A stretch of DNA of 64,000 bases, from assembly GCF_000816105.1 (NCBI RefSeq), contig NZ_CP007140.1, positions 744,001 through 808,000 on the forward strand, written 5' to 3'. Below the pieces are notes generated by a model that saw only the letters and a program-made list of their open reading frames with translations, was not told where the DNA came from and ran no database searches. The position numbers and the translations under genes are program-made. Below, piece by piece: positions 43,854 to 54,190 of the stretch (position 1 is its first letter; the number at the start of each line of letters is the position of its first letter). This stretch comes from Thermococcus guaymasensis DSM 11113 (GTDB taxonomy: Archaea > Methanobacteriota_B > Thermococci > Thermococcales > Thermococcaceae).

Positions 43854-43972
43854 CCATCTCACCTTCCTGCTTTTTACCGGAGGATCCTTTTAAAGGTTCC
43901 CCGGTCTTTTACTGCATACAGGAGTTAAGCTTATATACCCCAGTGTGTCTATTGAAACTCGGTGATAGCGTT

Positions 43973-45841
43973 ATGACCGGCATCGAATGGAACCACGAGA
44001 CCTTTTCTAAGTTCGCCTACCTGGGCGATCCGAGGATACGGGGGAACCTGATCGCATACACCCTGACGAAGGCCAACATGAAGGACAACAAGTACGAGAG
44101 CACTGTGGTTGTTGAAGACCTTGAAACGGGCTCAAGGCGCTTCATCGAGAACGCCTCAATGCCGAGGCTCTCCCCGGATGGCAAAAAGCTCGCATTTACC
44201 CGCTTTAACGAAGAGAAGAAGGAGACCGAGATATGGGTGGCCGATATCCAGACCCTGAGCGCCAAGAAAGTCCTCTCAACCAAAAACGTCCGCTCGATGC
44301 AGTGGAACGACGATTCGAGGAGACTCTTAGTTGTCGGCTTCAAGAGGAGGGACGATGAAGACTTCGTCTTCGACGACGACGTCCCGGTCTGGTTCGACAA
44401 TATGGGATTCTTTGATGGAGAGAAGACGACGTTCTGGGTTCTTGACACTGAGGCCGAGGAGATAATCGAGCAGTTCGAGAAGCCGAGGTTTTCGAGTGGC
44501 CTCTGGCACGGCGATGCGATAGTTGTAAACGTCCCGCACCGCGAGGGGAGCAAGCCTGCCCTGTTCAAGTTCTACGACATAATCCTCTGGAAAGACGGCG
44601 AAGAGGAGAAGCTCTTCGAGAGGGTCTCCTTCGAGGCGGTTGACTCCGACGGAAAGAGAATACTCCTCAGGGGCAAGAAAGAAAAGGGGTTCATCAGCGA
44701 GCACGACTGGCTGTACCTCTGGGACGGCGAGCTCAAGCCGGTCTACGAGGGCCCGCTCGACGTCTACGACGCGAAGCTCACCGACGGAAAAGTTTACTTC
44801 CTCACTCCAGATGCCGGTAGGGTGAACCTCTGGCTCTGGGACGGGAAGGCCGAGCGGGTTGTCACTGGCGACCACTGGATTTACGGGCTCGACGCCAGCG
44901 ATGGCAAAGCGTTGCTCCTCATCATGACCGCGACGAGGATAGGAGAACTCTACCTCTACGACGGCGAGCTGAAGCAGCTCACCGACTACAACGGGCCGAT
45001 ATTCGCCAAGCTCAAGACCTTCGAGCCAAGACACTTCCGCTTCAAGAGCAAAGACCTTGAGATAGACGGCTGGTACCTGAAGCCCGAGGTTAAGGATGAG
45101 AAGGCCCCGGTGATAGTCTTCGTCCACGGCGGGCCGAAGGGGATGTACGGCCACCGCTTCGTCTACGAGATGCAGCTTATGGCGAACAAGGGCTACTACG
45201 TCGTCTTCGTGAACCCGCGCGGTAGCGACGGCTACGACGAGGACTTCGCGCTCCGCGTCCTTGAAAGAACAGGTCTTGAGGATTTTGAGGACATAATGAA
45301 CGGCATCGAAGAGTTCTTCAGGCTCGAACCGCAGGCCGACAGGGAGCGCGTTGGAATAACCGGCATAAGCTACGGCGGCTTCATGACCAACTGGGCGCTC
45401 ACTCAGTCGGACCTCTTCAAGGCAGGAATAAGCGAGAACGGCATAAGCTACTGGCTCACCAGCTACGCCTTCTCGGACATAGGGCTCTGGTTCGATGTCG
45501 AGGTCATTGGAGCAAACCCGCTGGAGAACGAGAACTTCAGGAAGCTCAGCCCGCTGTTCTACGCGGGGAACGTAAAGGCCCCGATACTGCTCATCCACTC
45601 GCTTGAGGACTACCGCTGTCCGCTCGACCAGAGCCTTATGTTCTACAACGTGCTCAAGGACATGGGCAAGGAAGCTTACATTGCAATATTCAAGCGCGGC
45701 CCGCACGGCCACAGCGTCCGCGGAAGCCCCAGGCACAGGGCAAAGCGCTACAAGCTCTTTATAGAGTTCTTCGAGCGCAAACTCAAGAAGTACGAGGAGG
45801 GCTTTGAGGTAGAGAAGATCTTGAAGTCTGGAGGAGAGTGA
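43973..45841 (+). CDS. S9-family peptidase (acylaminoacyl-peptidase/prolyl oligopeptidase type)
   Basis: 622-residue serine peptidase: an N-terminal seven-bladed beta-propeller (residues about 1-360) followed by an alpha/beta hydrolase. The triad is visible as Ser in GITGISYGGFMTN (about residue 466), Asp in IHSLEDYRCPLDQ (about 546) and His in RGPHGHSVRG (about 578). Cytosolic (no signal peptide), in line with peptide degradation in a peptidolytic archaeon. ATG 43973 follows CGGTGATAGCGTT. Confidence 0.93.
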   Translation: MTGIEWNHETFSKFAYLGDPRIRGNLIAYTLTKANMKDNKYESTVVVEDLETGSRRFIENASMPRLSPDGKKLAFTRFNEEKKETEIWVADIQTLSAKKVLSTKNVRSMQWNDDSRRLLVVGFKRRDDEDFVFDDDVPVWFDNMGFFDGEKTTFWVLDTEAEEIIEQFEKPRFSSGLWHGDAIVVNVPHREGSKPALFKFYDIILWKDGEEEKLFERVSFEAVDSDGKRILLRGKKEKGFISEHDWLYLWDGELKPVYEGPLDVYDAKLTDGKVYFLTPDAGRVNLWLWDGKAERVVTGDHWIYGLDASDGKALLLIMTATRIGELYLYDGELKQLTDYNGPIFAKLKTFEPRHFRFKSKDLEIDGWYLKPEVKDEKAPVIVFVHGGPKGMYGHRFVYEMQLMANKGYYVVFVNPRGSDGYDEDFALRVLERTGLEDFEDIMNGIEEFFRLEPQADRERVGITGISYGGFMTNWALTQSDLFKAGISENGISYWLTSYAFSDIGLWFDVEVIGANPLENENFRKLSPLFYAGNVKAPILLIHSLEDYRCPLDQSLMFYNVLKDMGKEAYIAIFKRGPHGHSVRGSPRHRAKRYKLFIEFFERKLKKYEEGFEVEKILKSGGE

Positions 45842-45916: not shown

Positions 45917-47413
45917 ATGGGAGGAAAATTCGCTTTAGTCCTACTTCTAGTCGGTTTGGTCGTTATTTCGGCCGGCTGTATCGGGGGTGGTGGAGAAAAT
46001 GGCAGCACTCAAACTCAAACGACATCCTCACCAACCCAGTCCTCCACCCAATTGACTAGCACAACTTCCTCAACAACATCCCACACCACGACGACCTCCA
46101 CGGCGATTACGACCACTACTTCCACATCGGCATATTCGATTCCTAAGGTGTCAATTGATGAGTTAGGGGACTACGTCGGAAAGAACGTCAGCGTTGAGGG
46201 CCTCCTCCTCGGCCTCTCCTATGACTCCGGAAACCACGTCTACGTTATTTCGGTCGGCGAAAACGGCACCAAAATCAACGTCACGGCAAAGCGTGAGCTT
46301 CTGTCAGTCATCAACCCAATTGATGTTGGAGTGGGTTCCACAATCCTCGTGACGGGGAAAGTTGAGTCTCCGGATCAGATTTCGGCAGGGAAAATCGAAT
46401 TGGTCGAGAAAGCAACGCCAAATATAGTTGAGATCAAGGATCTGTCCTCGGACATGGTTGGGATGATAGTGGTGGTTGAGGGTAACATCCTCAGCGTTAA
46501 GGAGATCGGTTCCAACTTGACACTTACGATAAGTGACGGTACCTGTGAGATTGAAGTCCGTATTTTAGGTTCCGTGGTTGATGGCCTTGACGAGAGCGCG
46601 AAAGCCCAGCTTAAGGAGGGACTTGGTGTTAAGGTTGGTGGTTACCTTGACGAACACAACGGAAAACTTGAAGTCATACCCTATATTCCGGAGGCCATTA
46701 TAGCTTACGGAGAGCCCCTTCAGACGACGACAACCACGACTACTACCACAACAACCTCTGAAGAAATGACAACCACTACCACAACTACTACGACCGCATC
46801 CTCAATTCCAACGACTACAACTACCACGACCACTACGACGGCCCCACCAACCCAGCCAGGGCCTCAATGGGTCACCGTGTCGGATCTTTCCTCAGCAAGC
46901 GGTGTGGTTCAGCTCAACGCCACTTGGCTCAAGCTCTACTACTCCAAGCCGAATTACCTTCTCGAAGTCTCCGACGACACCGGCAGAGCAAACCTCACCG
47001 TTGAGAGAACCTTGCTCCCGAATCCGATTGAAGCCGGAACCGGAAGCGTGCTCCATCTGGTCGTTAACGCTTCCTCCATGACTGTCCTTAACCTCTCCGT
47101 GGTCTCCCCGCAGCCCTCGCCGCTTCTCAGCACAGCCGACATAACATATGAGCTTATGGGAACCACCGTCGTCGTTGAGGGCACTGTTTCGAACTTCCAG
47201 ACGATCGGTTCAAACCTGAAGTTCCTCGTTGTTGATGATAGTGGAAGCATAACAATCTTCGTGCCAGCTTCTGTAGCCTCGAAGCTCCCCGAGGACGTTA
47301 GGTCAGGGCTTCAGGAAGGGGCCTCAGTGAAGATCAGCGGCTACGTCACGGAATATAGGGGAACCATTGAGGTCATACCCTACTCGGTTGAGGGCATCGA
47401 GGTTCTGACTTAA
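45917..47413 (+). CDS. Lipobox-containing surface protein with four OB-like modules
   Basis: 498 residues. Signal with lipobox-like VISAGC at residues about 18-23, then a Ser/Thr linker (about 30-72), an A-B pair of OB-like modules (about 75-275), a Thr-rich linker (about 272-315) and a second A'-B pair to the end. B modules share VVVEGxxxxxxxIGSNLxxxxxDDxGxIxVFV-type strands. The same modules make up the next gene product, so the two are paralogues. Thr/Ser linkers are typical O-glycosylated stalks. Ligand unknown; OB folds bind nucleic acid, glycans or protein. Confidence 0.8.
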   Translation: MGGKFALVLLLVGLVVISAGCIGGGGENGSTQTQTTSSPTQSSTQLTSTTSSTTSHTTTTSTAITTTTSTSAYSIPKVSIDELGDYVGKNVSVEGLLLGLSYDSGNHVYVISVGENGTKINVTAKRELLSVINPIDVGVGSTILVTGKVESPDQISAGKIELVEKATPNIVEIKDLSSDMVGMIVVVEGNILSVKEIGSNLTLTISDGTCEIEVRILGSVVDGLDESAKAQLKEGLGVKVGGYLDEHNGKLEVIPYIPEAIIAYGEPLQTTTTTTTTTTTSEEMTTTTTTTTTASSIPTTTTTTTTTTAPPTQPGPQWVTVSDLSSASGVVQLNATWLKLYYSKPNYLLEVSDDTGRANLTVERTLLPNPIEAGTGSVLHLVVNASSMTVLNLSVVSPQPSPLLSTADITYELMGTTVVVEGTVSNFQTIGSNLKFLVVDDSGSITIFVPASVASKLPEDVRSGLQEGASVKISGYVTEYRGTIEVIPYSVEGIEVLT

Positions 47414-47519
47414 TCTTTTCATTTTTCTTGTGGCCAATGCTATACACGAAAATGTTAAAAGTCCGACTCTTCTACCCTTATGCCACGCCATAAAACTCAG
47501 AGATAGGGGAGGTGTTAAT

Positions 47520-50500
47520 GTGGTCTCAAATAGCTCAAGGGGAAACGATAACTCCAAAGAGGAACAAAAAAGGCTTTACTATCACGGACTGAAGGAACAG
47601 AAGAAGATAGACGTTTCCAGGCTGAAGTATATCTCCCTCATAATAGCAGTTCTTGGAGTCGCTTTGATTCTCATAGCGGCCCAAGGTGCCCAGGCCCCTC
47701 TCATGAAAGTGAACGACGTCTATGGAAACTACCTCATGAACTACGCGGTCGTGAGGATAAACGGCACCGTCGTCACCGTCCCCTATGTCTCCCAGTCCGG
47801 CGGAAAGCTTACCGTTACTTTTACAGTCGACGATGGGACAGGTCAAATCGATGTCAGGGTGTACTCACCCCTCGCTGACGAGATGCTGGAGAAAGGTGTG
47901 ATACCCTTCCCCGGGGACAATGTGACAGCGGAAGTCCAGCTCCGCGTGAGAGAGACGTACACCTACTCAATGCTCCAGTACCTTGAAGGACTAAGGTTCA
48001 ACTCAAAGCTCTACTCCGAGAACCCACAGGTCGTCAAGTCCCTCACTACAGACATGGCGAACACATACGTAGCGGTTGAAGGCATCGTCACCGAGTTCTC
48101 AAACGTCAGTTCGGGATACCTGCTTACCGTGGACACGGGCGAGTCTGAGGTTACCGTCCTCGTGCCGAAGGTTCTCCTCGTCTTTAACGACTTCAATGTG
48201 AAGGTCGGCGACATGATATACGCTCCAGGAATAGTCTACCTTTACAAGGGCACCTCACCTGAGATAGTCGTCAGGAATCTCTCCCAGGTCTCGGTGACGC
48301 CAATTGAAGAAGCCCCGCTCGTCCAGATAAGCGAGGCGCACGGCTATCCGGGAATGGTTATGGCCGTTAAGGGCTCCCTCGCTGGCATAACCTACGAGAG
48401 CGGCCGCTACGTGGTGACCCTTACCGACGGTCAGAACTACCTTGACGCCGTTGTCCCGCGCGAGATTCTCGCAAACCTCGACCCGTTCAGAGTATCAAGC
48501 GAGAGCACCATTAAGGTTGCCGGAAAGATGGGAGACGACGGCAGGCTCGTTGCGGCTTACCTGGCTGTCGTCGAGCCCGTTGAGACCGAGTTCAGGCCCA
48601 TAGGAACCCTAACCTCAGACATGCTCGGCTCGATAGTCGCGGTCAGGGGCAACATTGCGGAAGTCGTCAGGATAGGATCTAACCTCAAGCTCGTCATTGA
48701 CGATGGAACAGGAAAGATTGACGTCTTCATTCCGTCAGCCACCCTCGCCGAGATTTCCAACGAGACAATGGACAAGCTCAAGGATGGCCTCGGTGTTGAG
48801 GTTGGTGGATACCTTGAGGAGTACCGCGGTGCACTTGAGGTCGTGGTCTACACAGGATCCGGTATAAGGGCCCTCGGAGAACCAGTTCCGCCTCAGACCA
48901 TAGAACTCCCGAAGGTCAATGCCTCCCAGCTCGCTGACTACAAGGGCCAGCTTGTTGAGTTCGTTGGCTCTTTGGAGAGCATAACATACGTCGACGGCAC
49001 CTACTACCTCACAGTTGACGGTGTCAAGGTCTCCCTTTCGAGGGATGCACTACTCAACCTCAACCCGATCGAAGCGGGCACCGGCAGCCAGGTCGTTGTG
49101 AAGGGTCTCGTGGTCAATGAGAGCCTTGTGAAAGGCGAGAACCTCACAGTTGAAGTGCCCGTGGCCCCGGTTCCGCTCAAGCCAGACGAGGTCACTACGG
49201 AGATGGAGGGTCAGCTCGTCGTGGTCGTCGGCAAGGTCACAGACGTGGCAAACCTCAGCGGCAACCTCAAGATAACCATAGGCAGTCTCCCGATCTTCGT
49301 TCCGAGAACGACCGCCAATGAACTGGCTTATGTCCCGGCCGAGGGCGACCTCGTGCAGGTTGGTGGATACGTTGAAATCTACCAGGGCGAGCCGGAGGTC
49401 GTTCTCTTCCACCCGCTCGCCGTTGAAAAGCTCCAGCAGAGCGGGCCCGTCGAGGGAACGGTCTCTGACCTGGAAACGGCCGTCGAGCCGCTCCTCCTGA
49501 CGGTCACCTGGGACTCAATTGCTTACCAGGGGCCCGACTACGCCCTAACCGTCAGCGATTCCACCGGAAGCACGACACTCCTCGCCGAGCGCTCGCTCCT
49601 CCTCAACCCGCTCGAAGCCGGAACGGGAAGCACCCTCAAGATAGTTGCTGACCCACTCTCCGGCAGGATAACCCAGCTTGAGGTCAGCAAGGCCAAACCC
49701 TCGCCACTTCTCAGCACGGGTGCCGTTGATCTCTCCATGAAGGGCAAAACAGTCGCTGTGAATGGAACCGTCGTGGACGTGGCAGTTATAGGAAGCAGTC
49801 TCAAGCTGAGAGTTGACGACGGAAGCGGTGAGATAACTGTCTTCATACCTGGCGGAGCCGACCTCAGCGTCGAGGAGGGCCAGAGCGTTCTCCTCGCGGG
49901 CTACGTTGACGAGTACAACGGTGAGGTAGAAATAGTCGTCTACGACCTCAACGCTGTCGTGGTGAGCGAGAAACCTTCAGGAGGAAGTGCCGAAACAAAC
50001 GAGGTAAAAGTCGCCGAGCTTTCAAGCGCTACCGGAGTCGTTAATCTCACAGTGGTATGGGACGGGCTTAGCTACAACAACGGCTACGTCATGAAAGTCC
50101 ACGACGACAGCGGAAGTGCAGAGCTCCCAGTTCCAAGGGAGCTCCTTCCAGACCCGAGGGAAGCTGGAAGCGGAAGCACCCTCAGGATAACCTACGACGC
50201 TGACGCCAAGAAGGTCGTCTCCATAACCGTTGTTGAGGCAGTCCCGGCGGAGGAGCTCAAGACCGGCAAGGTCACCCTTGACCTGCTCGGAAAGACCGTC
50301 GTTGTCGAGGGCACCGTTAAGGACGTCTATGTGGGCAGTTCCTTCATCAAGCTTACCGTAGACGACGGAAGCGGCGAGCTGGTGGTATTCATTCCGAAGA
50401 GCGTCGCTGGAGACATGAGCTTCGAGAAGGGCCAGACGGTCAGAGTAGCGGGCTACGTCTCGGAGTACAAGGGAACCGTTGAGGTCATTCCCTACAGGAC

Positions 50501-50522
50501 TGACTGCATTGAGGTGAGGTGA
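47520..50522 (+). CDS. Giant membrane-anchored protein with about ten tandem OB-like modules
   Basis: About 1000 residues. A short basic cytoplasmic N-terminus, one membrane helix (ISLIIAVLGVALILIAA, about residues 38-55), then about ten modules of 80-100 residues alternating two types. Repeated phrases include VVVEGTVKDV, DDGTGKIDVFIP, VGGYLEEYRGALEVV and NPIEAGTGS. Start at GTG 47520 is set by GGGGAGGTG 5 nt upstream; the frame extends 30 codons further without a ribosome site. Its stop overlaps the next ATG by 1 nt. An extended rod of OB folds on the cell surface is the likely structure; function unknown. Confidence 0.8.
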   Translation: MVSNSSRGNDNSKEEQKRLYYHGLKEQKKIDVSRLKYISLIIAVLGVALILIAAQGAQAPLMKVNDVYGNYLMNYAVVRINGTVVTVPYVSQSGGKLTVTFTVDDGTGQIDVRVYSPLADEMLEKGVIPFPGDNVTAEVQLRVRETYTYSMLQYLEGLRFNSKLYSENPQVVKSLTTDMANTYVAVEGIVTEFSNVSSGYLLTVDTGESEVTVLVPKVLLVFNDFNVKVGDMIYAPGIVYLYKGTSPEIVVRNLSQVSVTPIEEAPLVQISEAHGYPGMVMAVKGSLAGITYESGRYVVTLTDGQNYLDAVVPREILANLDPFRVSSESTIKVAGKMGDDGRLVAAYLAVVEPVETEFRPIGTLTSDMLGSIVAVRGNIAEVVRIGSNLKLVIDDGTGKIDVFIPSATLAEISNETMDKLKDGLGVEVGGYLEEYRGALEVVVYTGSGIRALGEPVPPQTIELPKVNASQLADYKGQLVEFVGSLESITYVDGTYYLTVDGVKVSLSRDALLNLNPIEAGTGSQVVVKGLVVNESLVKGENLTVEVPVAPVPLKPDEVTTEMEGQLVVVVGKVTDVANLSGNLKITIGSLPIFVPRTTANELAYVPAEGDLVQVGGYVEIYQGEPEVVLFHPLAVEKLQQSGPVEGTVSDLETAVEPLLLTVTWDSIAYQGPDYALTVSDSTGSTTLLAERSLLLNPLEAGTGSTLKIVADPLSGRITQLEVSKAKPSPLLSTGAVDLSMKGKTVAVNGTVVDVAVIGSSLKLRVDDGSGEITVFIPGGADLSVEEGQSVLLAGYVDEYNGEVEIVVYDLNAVVVSEKPSGGSAETNEVKVAELSSATGVVNLTVVWDGLSYNNGYVMKVHDDSGSAELPVPRELLPDPREAGSGSTLRITYDADAKKVVSITVVEAVPAEELKTGKVTLDLLGKTVVVEGTVKDVYVGSSFIKLTVDDGSGELVVFIPKSVAGDMSFEKGQTVRVAGYVSEYKGTVEVIPYRTDCIEVR

Positions 50523-51850
50523 TGGCCATGATCCCCCTCTCTGACCTTTTACTTTGGTCGTTCGCCGGAGTGCTGTTCGGATCATTAATCTCGTGGATTC
50601 CAGGGTTCCACATATTTAACATAATGGCCCTGCTCGTGGCGGTCTTCGGCGTCGGTGAGCTGATACCAGTGCAGGCCTTCCCGTTCTTCGCCATAGGGGC
50701 CATAGTGGCTTACGCCTACGTGAGCGCGATATCGAGCGTCTACTTCAGCGTCGCCGACGAGAGCGCGGTGTTCCTCCTCTTCCCGACCCAGCGCTACCTG
50801 CTCCTTGGCAGGGGGCATGAGGCAGTGCTCCTCTACCTCATCGGGGCAGTTGCCGGAACCCTCGTTCTCGTACTGGGCGCACTCTTCGTATTCCCGAAGG
50901 TACTGCCACCGATCTACCAGGCGACCAGCCCGTACATAACTTACTTCCTTGTGGCCATAGTGGTCTTCATGTTCATGAGCGAGTGGCCCAAGGAAGGCGA
51001 CCGCGGAAAAACACCCCTTCAGAGGCTCTGGCTGGCATGGAGACAGATACTCGGCGGAATTGCTGTTTTCCTCCTCTCTGGTATCCTCGGGTTTGCGGTA
51101 ATGAACACCAACCTCCTTCCGACGACGAGCGCCTACACCAGGCTTACGCCGATGTTCATAGGCTTCTTCGGGATGTCGTGGGTTCTCCTCAACATACTCT
51201 CCAATCCGCCGATGCTCCCGCAGAAGCTTGACGATAAAGTCGAGAGCAGTGTCTACAACACACTCAAGGCCACCTTCGGCGGTGCCCTTGGGGGAACTAT
51301 AGCCGCGGTCTACCCGATAATCACCGGAGGTATGGGTGCGCTGGTGGCAGGCCACATAACCAGCCAGCGCGGAGACGACGCTTTCATCATAAGCCAGGGA
51401 GTTAACAGGGTCATCTACTACGTCGGGGCCTTTACGCTCCTCTTCCTGCCGAACCTGAGGCTGACGAGGGGAGCGGCGGCCTGGCTTGTGAGCTCGGTCT
51501 ACACGCCGAAGAGCTACGCAGAATACCTAGCGGCAATAGGCGTTATACTGCTGAGCGCCGGGATAAGCTTCCTCTTCACCTACTACCTCTCCAAGCTGAT
51601 CGCCAGGAGCTTCACCGTCGTCCACATCAGAAAGCTCTCGTACATCGTGGCAGTAGTCCTCGTGGTGATCTCATACGTCCTCACCGGCCCCATGGGAGTG
51701 GTTGTGCTCTTTGTCTCAACGGCCATTGGAATGATGGCGGCTGCCTTCAACACGAGGAGGAGTTACTGCCTTGGCGGTCTCGTCCTGCCCGTGCTGATAA
51801 GCATGACAGGGCACACCGGCGAGGTTATGCACCTGCTCGGTCTGGGGTGA
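50522..51850 (+). CDS. TctA/DUF112-family membrane permease
   Basis: 442 residues, about 11-12 helices, related to the TctA large subunit of tripartite tricarboxylate transporters (archaeal COG1784): GSLISWIPGFHIFNIMALL near the start and GGALGGTIAAVYPIITGGMGA (around residue 250) are the two internal homologous motifs. Classical TTT systems need a periplasmic binding protein (TctC) and TctB; neither is present here, but the multi-OB protein immediately upstream could play the extracytoplasmic role. ATG overlaps the preceding TGA (TGATG). Confidence 0.83.
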   Translation: MAMIPLSDLLLWSFAGVLFGSLISWIPGFHIFNIMALLVAVFGVGELIPVQAFPFFAIGAIVAYAYVSAISSVYFSVADESAVFLLFPTQRYLLLGRGHEAVLLYLIGAVAGTLVLVLGALFVFPKVLPPIYQATSPYITYFLVAIVVFMFMSEWPKEGDRGKTPLQRLWLAWRQILGGIAVFLLSGILGFAVMNTNLLPTTSAYTRLTPMFIGFFGMSWVLLNILSNPPMLPQKLDDKVESSVYNTLKATFGGALGGTIAAVYPIITGGMGALVAGHITSQRGDDAFIISQGVNRVIYYVGAFTLLFLPNLRLTRGAAAWLVSSVYTPKSYAEYLAAIGVILLSAGISFLFTYYLSKLIARSFTVVHIRKLSYIVAVVLVVISYVLTGPMGVVVLFVSTAIGMMAAAFNTRRSYCLGGLVLPVLISMTGHTGEVMHLLGLG

Positions 51851-51856
51851 TGTAAA

Positions 51857-53260
51857 ATGAGAGGGTTTACCCACTACATTTCGGGCCTTGCCGTGGCGAC
51901 CTTCTTCCCCTCCCTGGTGGCAGACCTCAGGATGGGCATTCTCCTGCCGGTTATAGCGGCGGCCGCGGCCTACTTCCCTGATTTCATGGACTTTAAGTTC
52001 GGGAAGTTCTTCGCGAGGAGGGACTACGAGATAGACCCCGCCCCCTGGGACGAGAAGAAGCACTACGCGCCAAAGCTCGTTAAAATCGGCGAGCTGGGCG
52101 AGAAGAACCGCTACCAGTTCTTCGCCATCGAGGGGAAGGTCGAGGAGATACTAACGAGGGGCTCTGGGACAGTCACCTACACAATCCTCAACGAGAAAGG
52201 CGAGCAGAAGACCGTTGAGGAGGAGTACAACAGCATTGTTTTCGTTCTCAACGACGGGACTGGAAAGATAACGGTCGAGGCCGTTGGGGACGACTACAAG
52301 TTCTTTGAGGAGGAGTTCGGCCAGATCGAAGAAGGCAAGGAGATCCTCGTCTTCGGCTACGTGGACGTTGACGAGCTCAGCAACGAGCTGCGCTTCGTTG
52401 TCAGCGATGCCCCGCACCCGCAGGGCATAGCGGAGACGGTAGCGAGGGCCATCGAAGAAGCTTACCGTGAGGGCGAGAGGATAGTCAAGATCCACAACAT
52501 CCGCCTTCCGGGAGACGTTTACAGACAGTTCTTCGTCCACCTCGACCCGCCGAAGAGGGAAGTCCGCGTCGAGATGGGACCGATAGTGACCCCTGGAGGA
52601 GTTGCTATAACGGACAAGCCGCCGGAGTACAGGCGCTATGGAATAGCGAAGGTCAACGTGCCCTTCATCAAGACCTATCCCAAGCCCACTAGGATAGACT
52701 CCTTCTCCGGCCCGGAGATAGCGTTCAGAAAAGCTGAGTTCAAGGGCAAAACGGTCGTCAAGGACAGGTTCCTGCCCTGGCATCACGGCTTCAGCCACTC
52801 GCTCACGATGGGCGTTATAATAGGGGCCTTCGTCTACGCGATCTTCAAGCTCCTCGGCTACAGCCACGCGGGTGATCTGGCCCTGGCTTCAATGATAGGT
52901 CAGTGGCTCCACGTCTTCGAAGACCAGCTCGGATTCATGGGCAGCAATCTCTTTCCGCCCATCACTAAGGACGTCATCCCGGGCTTCAAGCTCGGTGAGA
53001 GCGGCAGCGGTTTGACCAACTTCTCGACGGCCTGGCTGATGATAGCCTTCATGATATGGAACTTCAACCGCTTCACTGATCCACGGCCAATCCCAATAAG
53101 CGACGCCAAGCTGCTCCTCCTGCTGATATGGCCGTCAATAATAGGCTTTGGAATCGCCATAGTGAGAAGCTTCAAGCTCAGAAGGGAAATAGCCGAGCTG
53201 ATGGACTACTACACAAACATTGAAGCCTTCGAAGAGCTTGAAGAAGTCGGAGGGATTTAA
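51857..53260 (+). CDS. Membrane-bound metal-dependent hydrolase (YdjM-like) with internal OB-like domain
   Basis: 467 residues. N-terminal THYISGLAVATFFPSL and YFPDFMDFKFGKFF, and later LPWHHGFSHSL and HVFEDQLG, supply the His/Asp set of the YdjM (pfam04307) membrane hydrolase family. Residues about 75-190 are an inserted soluble domain with VLNDGTGKITVEA and ILVFGYVDVDE, resembling the OB modules of the two upstream proteins. Three or more membrane helices follow. ATG 51857 comes 6 nt after the permease stop with GGGGTGATG upstream. Substrate unknown. Confidence 0.8.
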   Translation: MRGFTHYISGLAVATFFPSLVADLRMGILLPVIAAAAAYFPDFMDFKFGKFFARRDYEIDPAPWDEKKHYAPKLVKIGELGEKNRYQFFAIEGKVEEILTRGSGTVTYTILNEKGEQKTVEEEYNSIVFVLNDGTGKITVEAVGDDYKFFEEEFGQIEEGKEILVFGYVDVDELSNELRFVVSDAPHPQGIAETVARAIEEAYREGERIVKIHNIRLPGDVYRQFFVHLDPPKREVRVEMGPIVTPGGVAITDKPPEYRRYGIAKVNVPFIKTYPKPTRIDSFSGPEIAFRKAEFKGKTVVKDRFLPWHHGFSHSLTMGVIIGAFVYAIFKLLGYSHAGDLALASMIGQWLHVFEDQLGFMGSNLFPPITKDVIPGFKLGESGSGLTNFSTAWLMIAFMIWNFNRFTDPRPIPISDAKLLLLLIWPSIIGFGIAIVRSFKLRREIAELMDYYTNIEAFEELEEVGGI

Positions 53261-54117
53261 TCCCTTCTCTCCCTCTTTTCAGGTTTTCTCGCCACAACTC
53301 CAAGCGCTTCCTCGATCCTTTTAACCCCCACAAAGCCAGCCTTCCTCAACCGCTCCATGACACCCCTCTGGAGGTCTTTTCTGCGGTATTTCCTTCCGGG
53401 GTTGCCGACGTAATGGAAGAGCCTACCTCCGGGCTTCAGAACCCTGAAAAGCTCGCGGTAGAACTCCTCAGAGTATAGCTGGCCCGCCAAAGAGAAGCGC
53501 GGCGGGTCGTGGATTACAACGTCAAAGCTCCCGTCCTTGAACTTCTTCACGACCTCGAAGGCATCTCCCTGGATCACCTGGATTTTGCCGCCCGTGAACA
53601 GCTCCCTGCTCCAGGGGTTTATCCTCGCCAGCTCGATGACGTTGGGGTCTTTCTCGATGGTTATGACGTAGGCCCCGCGCTTTGAGGCCTCGATGGCGGT
53701 GTAGCCGAGCCCCATGCAGGTATCGAGGACGGTTTCCCCTTCCCTCGGCTTAACGGTGTTCACCTTGTTCCTCGTGTCCTGGAGGGGGTTTACCTCCTTC
53801 GTCCTGTGCATCCTGATGCCGTTTATCTCTATAGTCGGTGGAATCGTCGGAACGAGCTTGTAGAAGTGCTCTCCGGCTATTGCAGCCTTGTAGACTCCCC
53901 CGTCCTTCACGAAGTAGACGCTTCCCTCGTCTCGTGCAATCCTCCCGATGATTTCCCTCTCAACTCGCGTTCCATCGGGAAAGACGAACTCGTTGTCTTC
54001 CTGTTTTATTTCCCACGTTCTGTTGGTCTTCCTGAGGTCAAGGTTAACTCTGAGTGCACCTTTGGAAATAAGCAACAGCTTTGCTTCCCTTGATGTCAGA
54101 TAGTAAATCTCGTCCAT
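53257..54117 (-). CDS. Predicted archaeal SAM-dependent methyltransferase (COG2521-like)
   Basis: 286 residues. An N-terminal domain of about 120 residues precedes a Rossmann methyltransferase: motif I VLDTCMGLGYTAIEASKRG, acidic loop IEKDPNVIELA, and motif IV VVIHDPPRFSL, with FRVLKPGGRLFHYVGNPG. The DPPR motif is akin to RNA/DNA amino-methyltransferases. Start at 54117 (MDEIYYLT) behind GGTGGGTGTC. Converges on the hydrolase gene with a 4-nt overlap of stops. Confidence 0.85.
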   Translation of the reverse strand: MDEIYYLTSREAKLLLISKGALRVNLDLRKTNRTWEIKQEDNEFVFPDGTRVEREIIGRIARDEGSVYFVKDGGVYKAAIAGEHFYKLVPTIPPTIEINGIRMHRTKEVNPLQDTRNKVNTVKPREGETVLDTCMGLGYTAIEASKRGAYVITIEKDPNVIELARINPWSRELFTGGKIQVIQGDAFEVVKKFKDGSFDVVIHDPPRFSLAGQLYSEEFYRELFRVLKPGGRLFHYVGNPGRKYRRKDLQRGVMERLRKAGFVGVKRIEEALGVVARKPEKRERRD

Positions 54118-54190
54118 TTTGACACCCACCGGTGATTGATAAAAAGCCTTTAATACATTGCTGCAGTTAATCGGTTAATGGTGGTGTATT

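What the first reader, a model, noticed from the sequence alone, without database searches (positions are those of the whole stretch)
45917..53260. OB-fold surface cassette: two multi-OB proteins, a TctA-like permease and a membrane hydrolase with an OB insert
Seen: the lipoprotein-like and giant proteins are paralogues of alternating OB-like modules; the last three genes are tightly coupled (1-nt overlap, 6-nt gap); the hydrolase carries the same DGTGKI strand motif in an inserted domain. Inference: an uncharacterised uptake or envelope machine in which the OB rod captures a polymer or solute outside, the permease moves it and the hydrolase processes it. The permease lacks the usual TctB/TctC partners.
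Basis: partly seen in the sequence, partly recalled or inferred. Interest (0 to 1): 0.72.

Follow-up and report, generated by a model that had tools for sequence, protein, structure and literature searches.

The report
Expanded archaeal OB–TctA uptake cassette
A block of three genes in Thermococcus makes a long outside rod of ten nucleic-acid-binding-type domains, a membrane pore and a membrane hydrolase; it is an enlarged version of a gene pair found across archaea that a methanogen needs to take up DNA, so it may be part of the still unknown archaeal DNA-import machinery.

Summary
Four genes at 45917-53260 encode two multi-OB proteins, a TctA-family permease and a YdjM-family membrane hydrolase with an OB-fold insert. 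Structure prediction gives ten OB modules in the giant (mean pLDDT 84) and an RPA/AspRS-type OB fold in the hydrolase insert (Z 13). The core is three genes (giant-tctA-ydjM) with their own conserved promoter; the OB lipoprotein is optional. In 61 Thermococcus genomes the core is all-or-none (30 with all three), at one site between an S9 peptidase and a methyltransferase. It was gained or lost as a block at least 8 times, and five genomes keep 3' scars. In Methanococcus maripaludis that pair (MMJJ_13020/13030, found here as L170) is essential for natural transformation (PMC10133366). Every Thermococcales genome with adequate data carries an ordinary copy elsewhere. The window cassette is thus an extra, expanded variant with a hydrolase added. 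Nucleic-acid import is the best reading (about 0.5), by homology only. Against it: its OB modules are acidic, its TctA is deeply diverged, and competent relatives lack it. New variant of a known kind.

The parts
45917..47413 (+). optional OB-fold lipoprotein (498 aa): lipobox-like signal, Thr-rich linkers, two pairs of OB modules
   Evidence: PF01336 E 4.8e-17; absent or inverted in many cassettes, so not core
47445..47460 (+). BRE/TATA-like promoter CACGAAANNNTTAAAA of the three-gene core
   Evidence: present directly upstream of the giant in 16 of 16 loci compared; only match in the window, 0 expected by shuffling
47514..50522 (+). giant OB protein (about 1002 aa): conserved basic cytosolic tail with LYYHGL.EQKK, one TM helix (residues 37-57), ten extracellular OB-like modules
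   Evidence: ORF as listed by the tool begins at 47430
50522..51850 (+). TctA-family permease (PF01970), archaeal PGxH motif; an in-frame GTG start lies at 50519
51857..53260 (+). YdjM-family (PF04307) membrane hydrolase with a large insert; OB fold at protein residues 70-184, second domain at about 188-305
   Evidence: PF04307 48 bits versus cut-off 29
43943..45841 (+). left flank of the fixed site: S9 peptidase (not part of the cassette)
53257..54129 (-). right flank of the fixed site: methyltransferase, convergent, overlapping the ydjM 3' end (not part of the cassette)

Best explanation
The core operon (giant OB protein, TctA, YdjM hydrolase) is an expanded, accessory copy of the pan-archaeal 'single-TM OB protein + TctA' gene pair. 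It most likely moves nucleic acid across the membrane. The ten-module OB rod, anchored by one helix with its tail inside, captures the polymer outside. The TctA-family protein forms the passage. The membrane-embedded YdjM hydrolase, with its own RPA-like OB insert, handles or trims the strand. Shown here: gene content, folds, operon, block inheritance, fixed site, kinship of the layout with the Methanococcus transformation genes. Inferred: substrate, direction of transport, nuclease activity, sidedness of the hydrolase insert. I put kinship to the OB-TctA pair at about 0.85 and nucleic-acid transport by this particular copy at about 0.5.
For: Layout: outside Thermococcales, an OB protein lies directly upstream of tctA in 14 of 30 archaeal loci where a tctA ORF was called; OB hits among the other ORFs are few (odds ratio 54, Fisher p 2e-12, computed with a profile built from the partners). 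Nine of ten upstream partners in the domain-wide set hit PF01336 on their own. The same pair is in all well-assembled Thermococcales. Experimental link: L170 is the M. maripaludis JJ locus, because the transposon sites 1,193,041/088/089 and 1,194,079 of PMC10133366 fall inside its OB and tctA genes. Both deletions abolish transformation and are complemented, and the Methanoculleus tctA homologue is also essential. Homology: giant N-terminal anchor plus first OB versus the OB partners, hhalign E 2.5e-9 across the TM helix; PGxH motif (P[GA]xH) in 45 of 45 archaeal TctA proteins including cassette and MMJJ_13030. Folds: nearest solved structures are RPA, AspRS/AsnRS, HIN-200, CST, Teb1. No ComEC and no TctC in the genome.
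Against: The giant's ectodomain is acidic (-5.8 per 100 residues; the hydrolase OB insert is net -13), whereas the ordinary Thermococcales OB partner is basic (+2.5 to +4.9). MMJJ_13020 is also mildly acidic (-3.7), so charge alone does not decide. Cassette TctA sits on a very long stem (2.23) without firm placement and evolves far more slowly than the ordinary copy (79-95% identity versus 47-70%, the latter over a somewhat wider species set), which suggests a different job. Naturally competent P. furiosus belongs to a genus without the cassette (no genus other than g1 has it), so it cannot be the general competence transporter. No nuclease activity is known to me for YdjM proteins, and YdjM is not seen next to tctA outside Thermococcus. 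OB folds also bind oligosaccharides and proteins.
Confidence: 0.5

Rival explanations
1. A neofunctionalised OB-TctA machine that imports another ligand (oligosaccharide, peptide, metal complex or organic anion). The acidic OB rod binds it, TctA carries it, the YdjM hydrolase processes it. This is.
For: Acidic modules; long stem and strong conservation of cassette TctA; bacterial TctA proteins carry citrate (PMC10133366); OB folds are versatile.
Against: No solute-binding TctC in the genome; nearest folds are nucleic-acid binders; the only tested archaeal relatives act in DNA uptake.
Confidence: 0.3
2. An envelope or export machine rather than an importer: for example DNA or polymer release to vesicles, or anchoring of a surface polymer, with TctA and YdjM working on lipid-linked precursors.
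For: Thermococcales shed DNA-bearing vesicles (own knowledge, not tested here); YdjM is a membrane protein of unknown substrate; direction of transport is untested.
Against: The related pair in Methanococcus is required for import.
Confidence: 0.12
3. A defence or mobile-element cassette kept at a variable site.
For: Presence/absence at one fixed site with at least 8 changes; a different gene (an ATPase) sits at the same site in one genome.
Against: No PADLOC defence match of note; no relatives in viral contigs or plasmids; no integrase seen in the cassette loci read.
Confidence: 0.06

Closest known systems
MMJJ_13020 / MMJJ_13030 of Methanococcus maripaludis (OB-fold single-TM protein and TctA-like protein, essential for natural transformation; PMC10133366)
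   Same: Gene order, single-TM OB protein directly upstream of a TctA-family protein, PF01970 and PF01336 hits, PGxH motif, no TctC partner
   Different: Cassette rod has ten OB modules instead of one, lacks the C-terminal Ada-like cysteine region, is coupled to a YdjM hydrolase, is more acidic, and exists beside an ordinary copy; TctA orthology is not resolved
Ordinary Thermococcales OB-TctA pair (own genome about 1269015-1271305, L075)
   Same: Overlapping OB and tctA genes, one TM anchor
   Different: One copy per genome, basic OB ectodomain, no hydrolase; about 25% identity in TctA
Bacterial ComEC (OB + channel + nuclease)
   Same: The same three kinds of part: OB domain, polytopic channel, metal hydrolase (analogy only)
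   Different: Separate proteins, different channel and hydrolase families; PF03772 is absent from the genome
YdjM family (PF04307)
   Same: Scores over the family cut-off; His/Asp motifs invariant among orthologues
   Different: About 250-residue insert with an OB fold, found only in Thermococcus in the collections searched
Bacterial tripartite tricarboxylate transporter TctABC
   Same: TctA family protein
   Different: No TctC in the genome; OB partner instead

Membership tests
archaeal OB-TctA pair (MMJJ_13020/13030 type) | TctA-family protein with archaeal PGxH motif | tested here: met
   PF01970 E 2e-43; motif in 45/45 incl. cassette and MMJJ_13030
archaeal OB-TctA pair (MMJJ_13020/13030 type) | single-TM OB protein directly upstream in the same operon | tested here: met
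archaeal OB-TctA pair (MMJJ_13020/13030 type) | TctA orthologous to MMJJ_13030 | tested here: inconclusive
   same family, but cassette TctA on a 2.23 stem with weak placement
archaeal OB-TctA pair (MMJJ_13020/13030 type) | required for natural transformation | not testable with these tools
   shown for M. maripaludis (pair) and M. thermophilus (TctA) only; needs T. kodakarensis deletion
TctABC tripartite transporter | TctC binding protein | tested here: not met
   PF03401 absent, controls ring
TctABC tripartite transporter | TctB small membrane subunit | not tested
   no search made; no such gene seen in the operon
ComEC | Competence channel domain PF03772 | tested here: not met
   absent from the genome, controls ring
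YdjM (PF04307) | profile match over curated cut-off | tested here: met
   48.3 bits versus 29
YdjM (PF04307) | conserved His/Asp putative metal site | tested here: inconclusive
   H6, D42, D45, H309, H310, H314, H352, E355, D356 invariant in 11 orthologues, but the site is not modelled confidently
YdjM (PF04307) | hydrolase activity | not testable with these tools
   no assay
OB-fold proteins | five-strand OB barrel | tested here: met

The most novel reading that the evidence does not exclude
The operon is a three-protein archaeal counterpart of ComEC: an OB rod that receives DNA, a TctA-family channel and a YdjM-type membrane nuclease with an RPA-like OB insert that degrades or hands over one strand. 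It would be a second, swappable DNA-import system beside the ordinary OB-TctA pair.
Probability: 0.25. Interest if true: 0.85.

Novelty: new variant of a known kind. Interest (0 to 1): 0.62.

Why it matters
How archaea move DNA across the membrane during transformation is an open question: ComEC homologues have not been identified in naturally competent archaea, and a TctA-like protein was proposed as transporter in 2023. This work ties that proposal to a gene pair seen across archaea and shows that Thermococcus carries a second, much enlarged version with a hydrolase attached.

Tried and rejected
(1) Citrate-type TTT transporter: no TctC in the genome. (2) ComEC: absent. (3) Defence system: no PADLOC match of note. 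(4) Mobile or viral origin: no relatives of the hydrolase in IMG/VR or PLSDB; tctA in plasmids only as distant cyanobacterial proteins. (5) Recent duplication of the ordinary Thermococcales pair: not supported for TctA by the tree. (6) YdjM-TctA linkage elsewhere in archaea: none seen among the listed matches. (7) Relating the YdjM catalytic half to a known hydrolase fold: Foldseek/VIA rows covered only the OB insert (residues 70-184) and the TM half has low pLDDT, so nothing can be said. (8) PDB sequence search gave no relative of the giant and no convincing one for the hydrolase. (10) Net charge as a test of DNA binding: ambiguous, because MMJJ_13020 is mildly acidic too.

Full report
What is there. 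The window lies in a complete 1.92 Mb Thermococcus genome (genus from titles of near relatives). Genes at 45917-53260 are an OB-fold lipoprotein, a giant OB protein, a TctA-family permease and a YdjM-family membrane protein with a large insert. The giant's conserved part starts near 47514; an invariant BRE/TATA-like element CACGAAANNNTTAAAA precedes it in 16 of 16 loci, also where the lipoprotein gene lies upstream, and matches nowhere else in the window. So giant-tctA-ydjM looks like a three-gene operon with its own promoter.

OB modules. AlphaFold2 of the giant (mean pLDDT 84) shows one TM helix near residues 41-57 and ten OB-like units: 78-163, 185-262, 282-354, 374-453, 480-548, 568-639, 660-726, 746-817, 842-908, 928-1001 (unit boundaries are my reading of the strand list). 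Closest solved structures are AspRS/AsnRS anticodon-binding OB domains, HIN-200, CST, Teb1 and RPA. The hydrolase insert at residues 70-184 is an OB fold closest to Pyrococcus abyssi RPA (Foldseek 9e-7; VIA Z 13.1). The basic tail before the TM helix argues for tail inside, modules outside (positive-inside rule). The tail motif LYYHGL.EQKK is nearly invariant in eight orthologues.

Inheritance. Among 61 genomes of the genus, 30 carry close copies of all three core genes and none carries only one or two, apart from fragments. G061 has a ydjM fragment at a contig end. Five genomes (G068, G041, G054, G026, G020) hold 3' scars of ydjM with different end points, G041 with a piece of the OB lipoprotein attached. 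The cassette was always found between the S9 peptidase and the methyltransferase where both flanks were read; in many genomes without it the two flanks are 12-60 bp apart. On a tree of the S9 neighbour the presence/absence label needs 12 changes, and well-supported branches force at least 8; the neighbour's tree is only a proxy for the species tree. The lipoprotein is present, truncated, inverted or absent. The giant comes in a ten-module form and a shorter form of about 690 residues. No other genus of the family has the core.

The wider family. A second TctA (about 375 residues) occurs in nearly every Thermococcales genome, overlapping an upstream single-TM OB protein of about 390 residues. 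TctA occurs in 231 of 298 sampled archaeal genomes. In 20 divergent loci, ten have a protein with an N-terminal hydrophobic helix directly upstream of tctA, and nine of these ten hit the OB family PF01336; five Methanococcales loci show the same arrangement and six do not. OB proteins are strongly concentrated at this position, with the caveat that the profile used was built partly from these partners. The number of OB domains ranges from one (L132, L135, L142) through three (L125) to ten in the window.

Link to function. PMC10133366 reports that in M. maripaludis JJ the adjacent genes MMJJ_13020 (OB fold, one TM) and MMJJ_13030 (TctA-like) are essential for natural transformation, with complementation, and that a Methanoculleus thermophilus TctA homologue is essential as well; the authors propose the TctA-like protein as DNA transporter. 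The published transposon coordinates fall inside the OB and tctA genes of G307 (L170), which identifies that locus. Contig lengths identify G023 as T. kodakarensis KOD1 (2,088,737 bp) and G025 as T. onnurineus NA1 (1,847,607 bp) from my own knowledge; both carry the full core. T. kodakarensis is naturally competent.

How it may work. By analogy with ComEC, where an OB fold and a metal nuclease act together at the channel mouth (PMC12455585), the OB rod would collect the polymer, TctA would pass it, and YdjM would process it. Only the parts and their kinship are shown; substrate, direction and catalysis are inferred. Points against: the giant and lipoprotein ectodomains are acidic while the ordinary Thermococcales OB partner is basic; the ComEC OB fold binds DNA electrostatically (section heading); cassette TctA is deeply diverged yet strongly conserved within Thermococcus; and competence exists in relatives that lack it. 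I therefore hold nucleic-acid import at about 0.5 and a changed substrate at 0.3.

Verdict. A real, tightly co-inherited Thermococcus operon; a new variant of the archaeal OB-TctA pair, with a YdjM hydrolase bearing an OB insert that I found nowhere else.

Noticed in passing
own genome about 1269015-1271305 (L075:3516-5806): Ordinary Thermococcales OB-TctA pair, overlapping genes, near KaiC-like genes in most genomes; a candidate competence locus for the whole order.
   Followed up: partly
L188:2875-3939: In G043 (no cassette) the S9-methyltransferase gap holds a 354-aa ATPase gene instead, so this site takes different inserts; G054 has a 4.6-kb gap of other content.
   Followed up: no
L137:5472-6251: A metallo-beta-lactamase-fold hydrolase gene follows tctA directly on the same strand in one distant archaeon; perhaps another hydrolase partner of TctA.
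   Followed up: no
L170:3954-4562, L174:3624-4235: Methanococcal OB partners carry a C-terminal Cys/His region weakly resembling the Ada metal-binding domain, which the Thermococcus proteins lack.
   Followed up: no
G004, G006, G008: In three genomes of genus group g3 the ordinary OB partner matches only over about 235 residues but still abuts tctA: a shortened form, again showing variable OB number.
   Followed up: partly
L036:8137-8276: G072 has the cassette but its S9 peptidase neighbour is reduced to short fragments.
   Followed up: no
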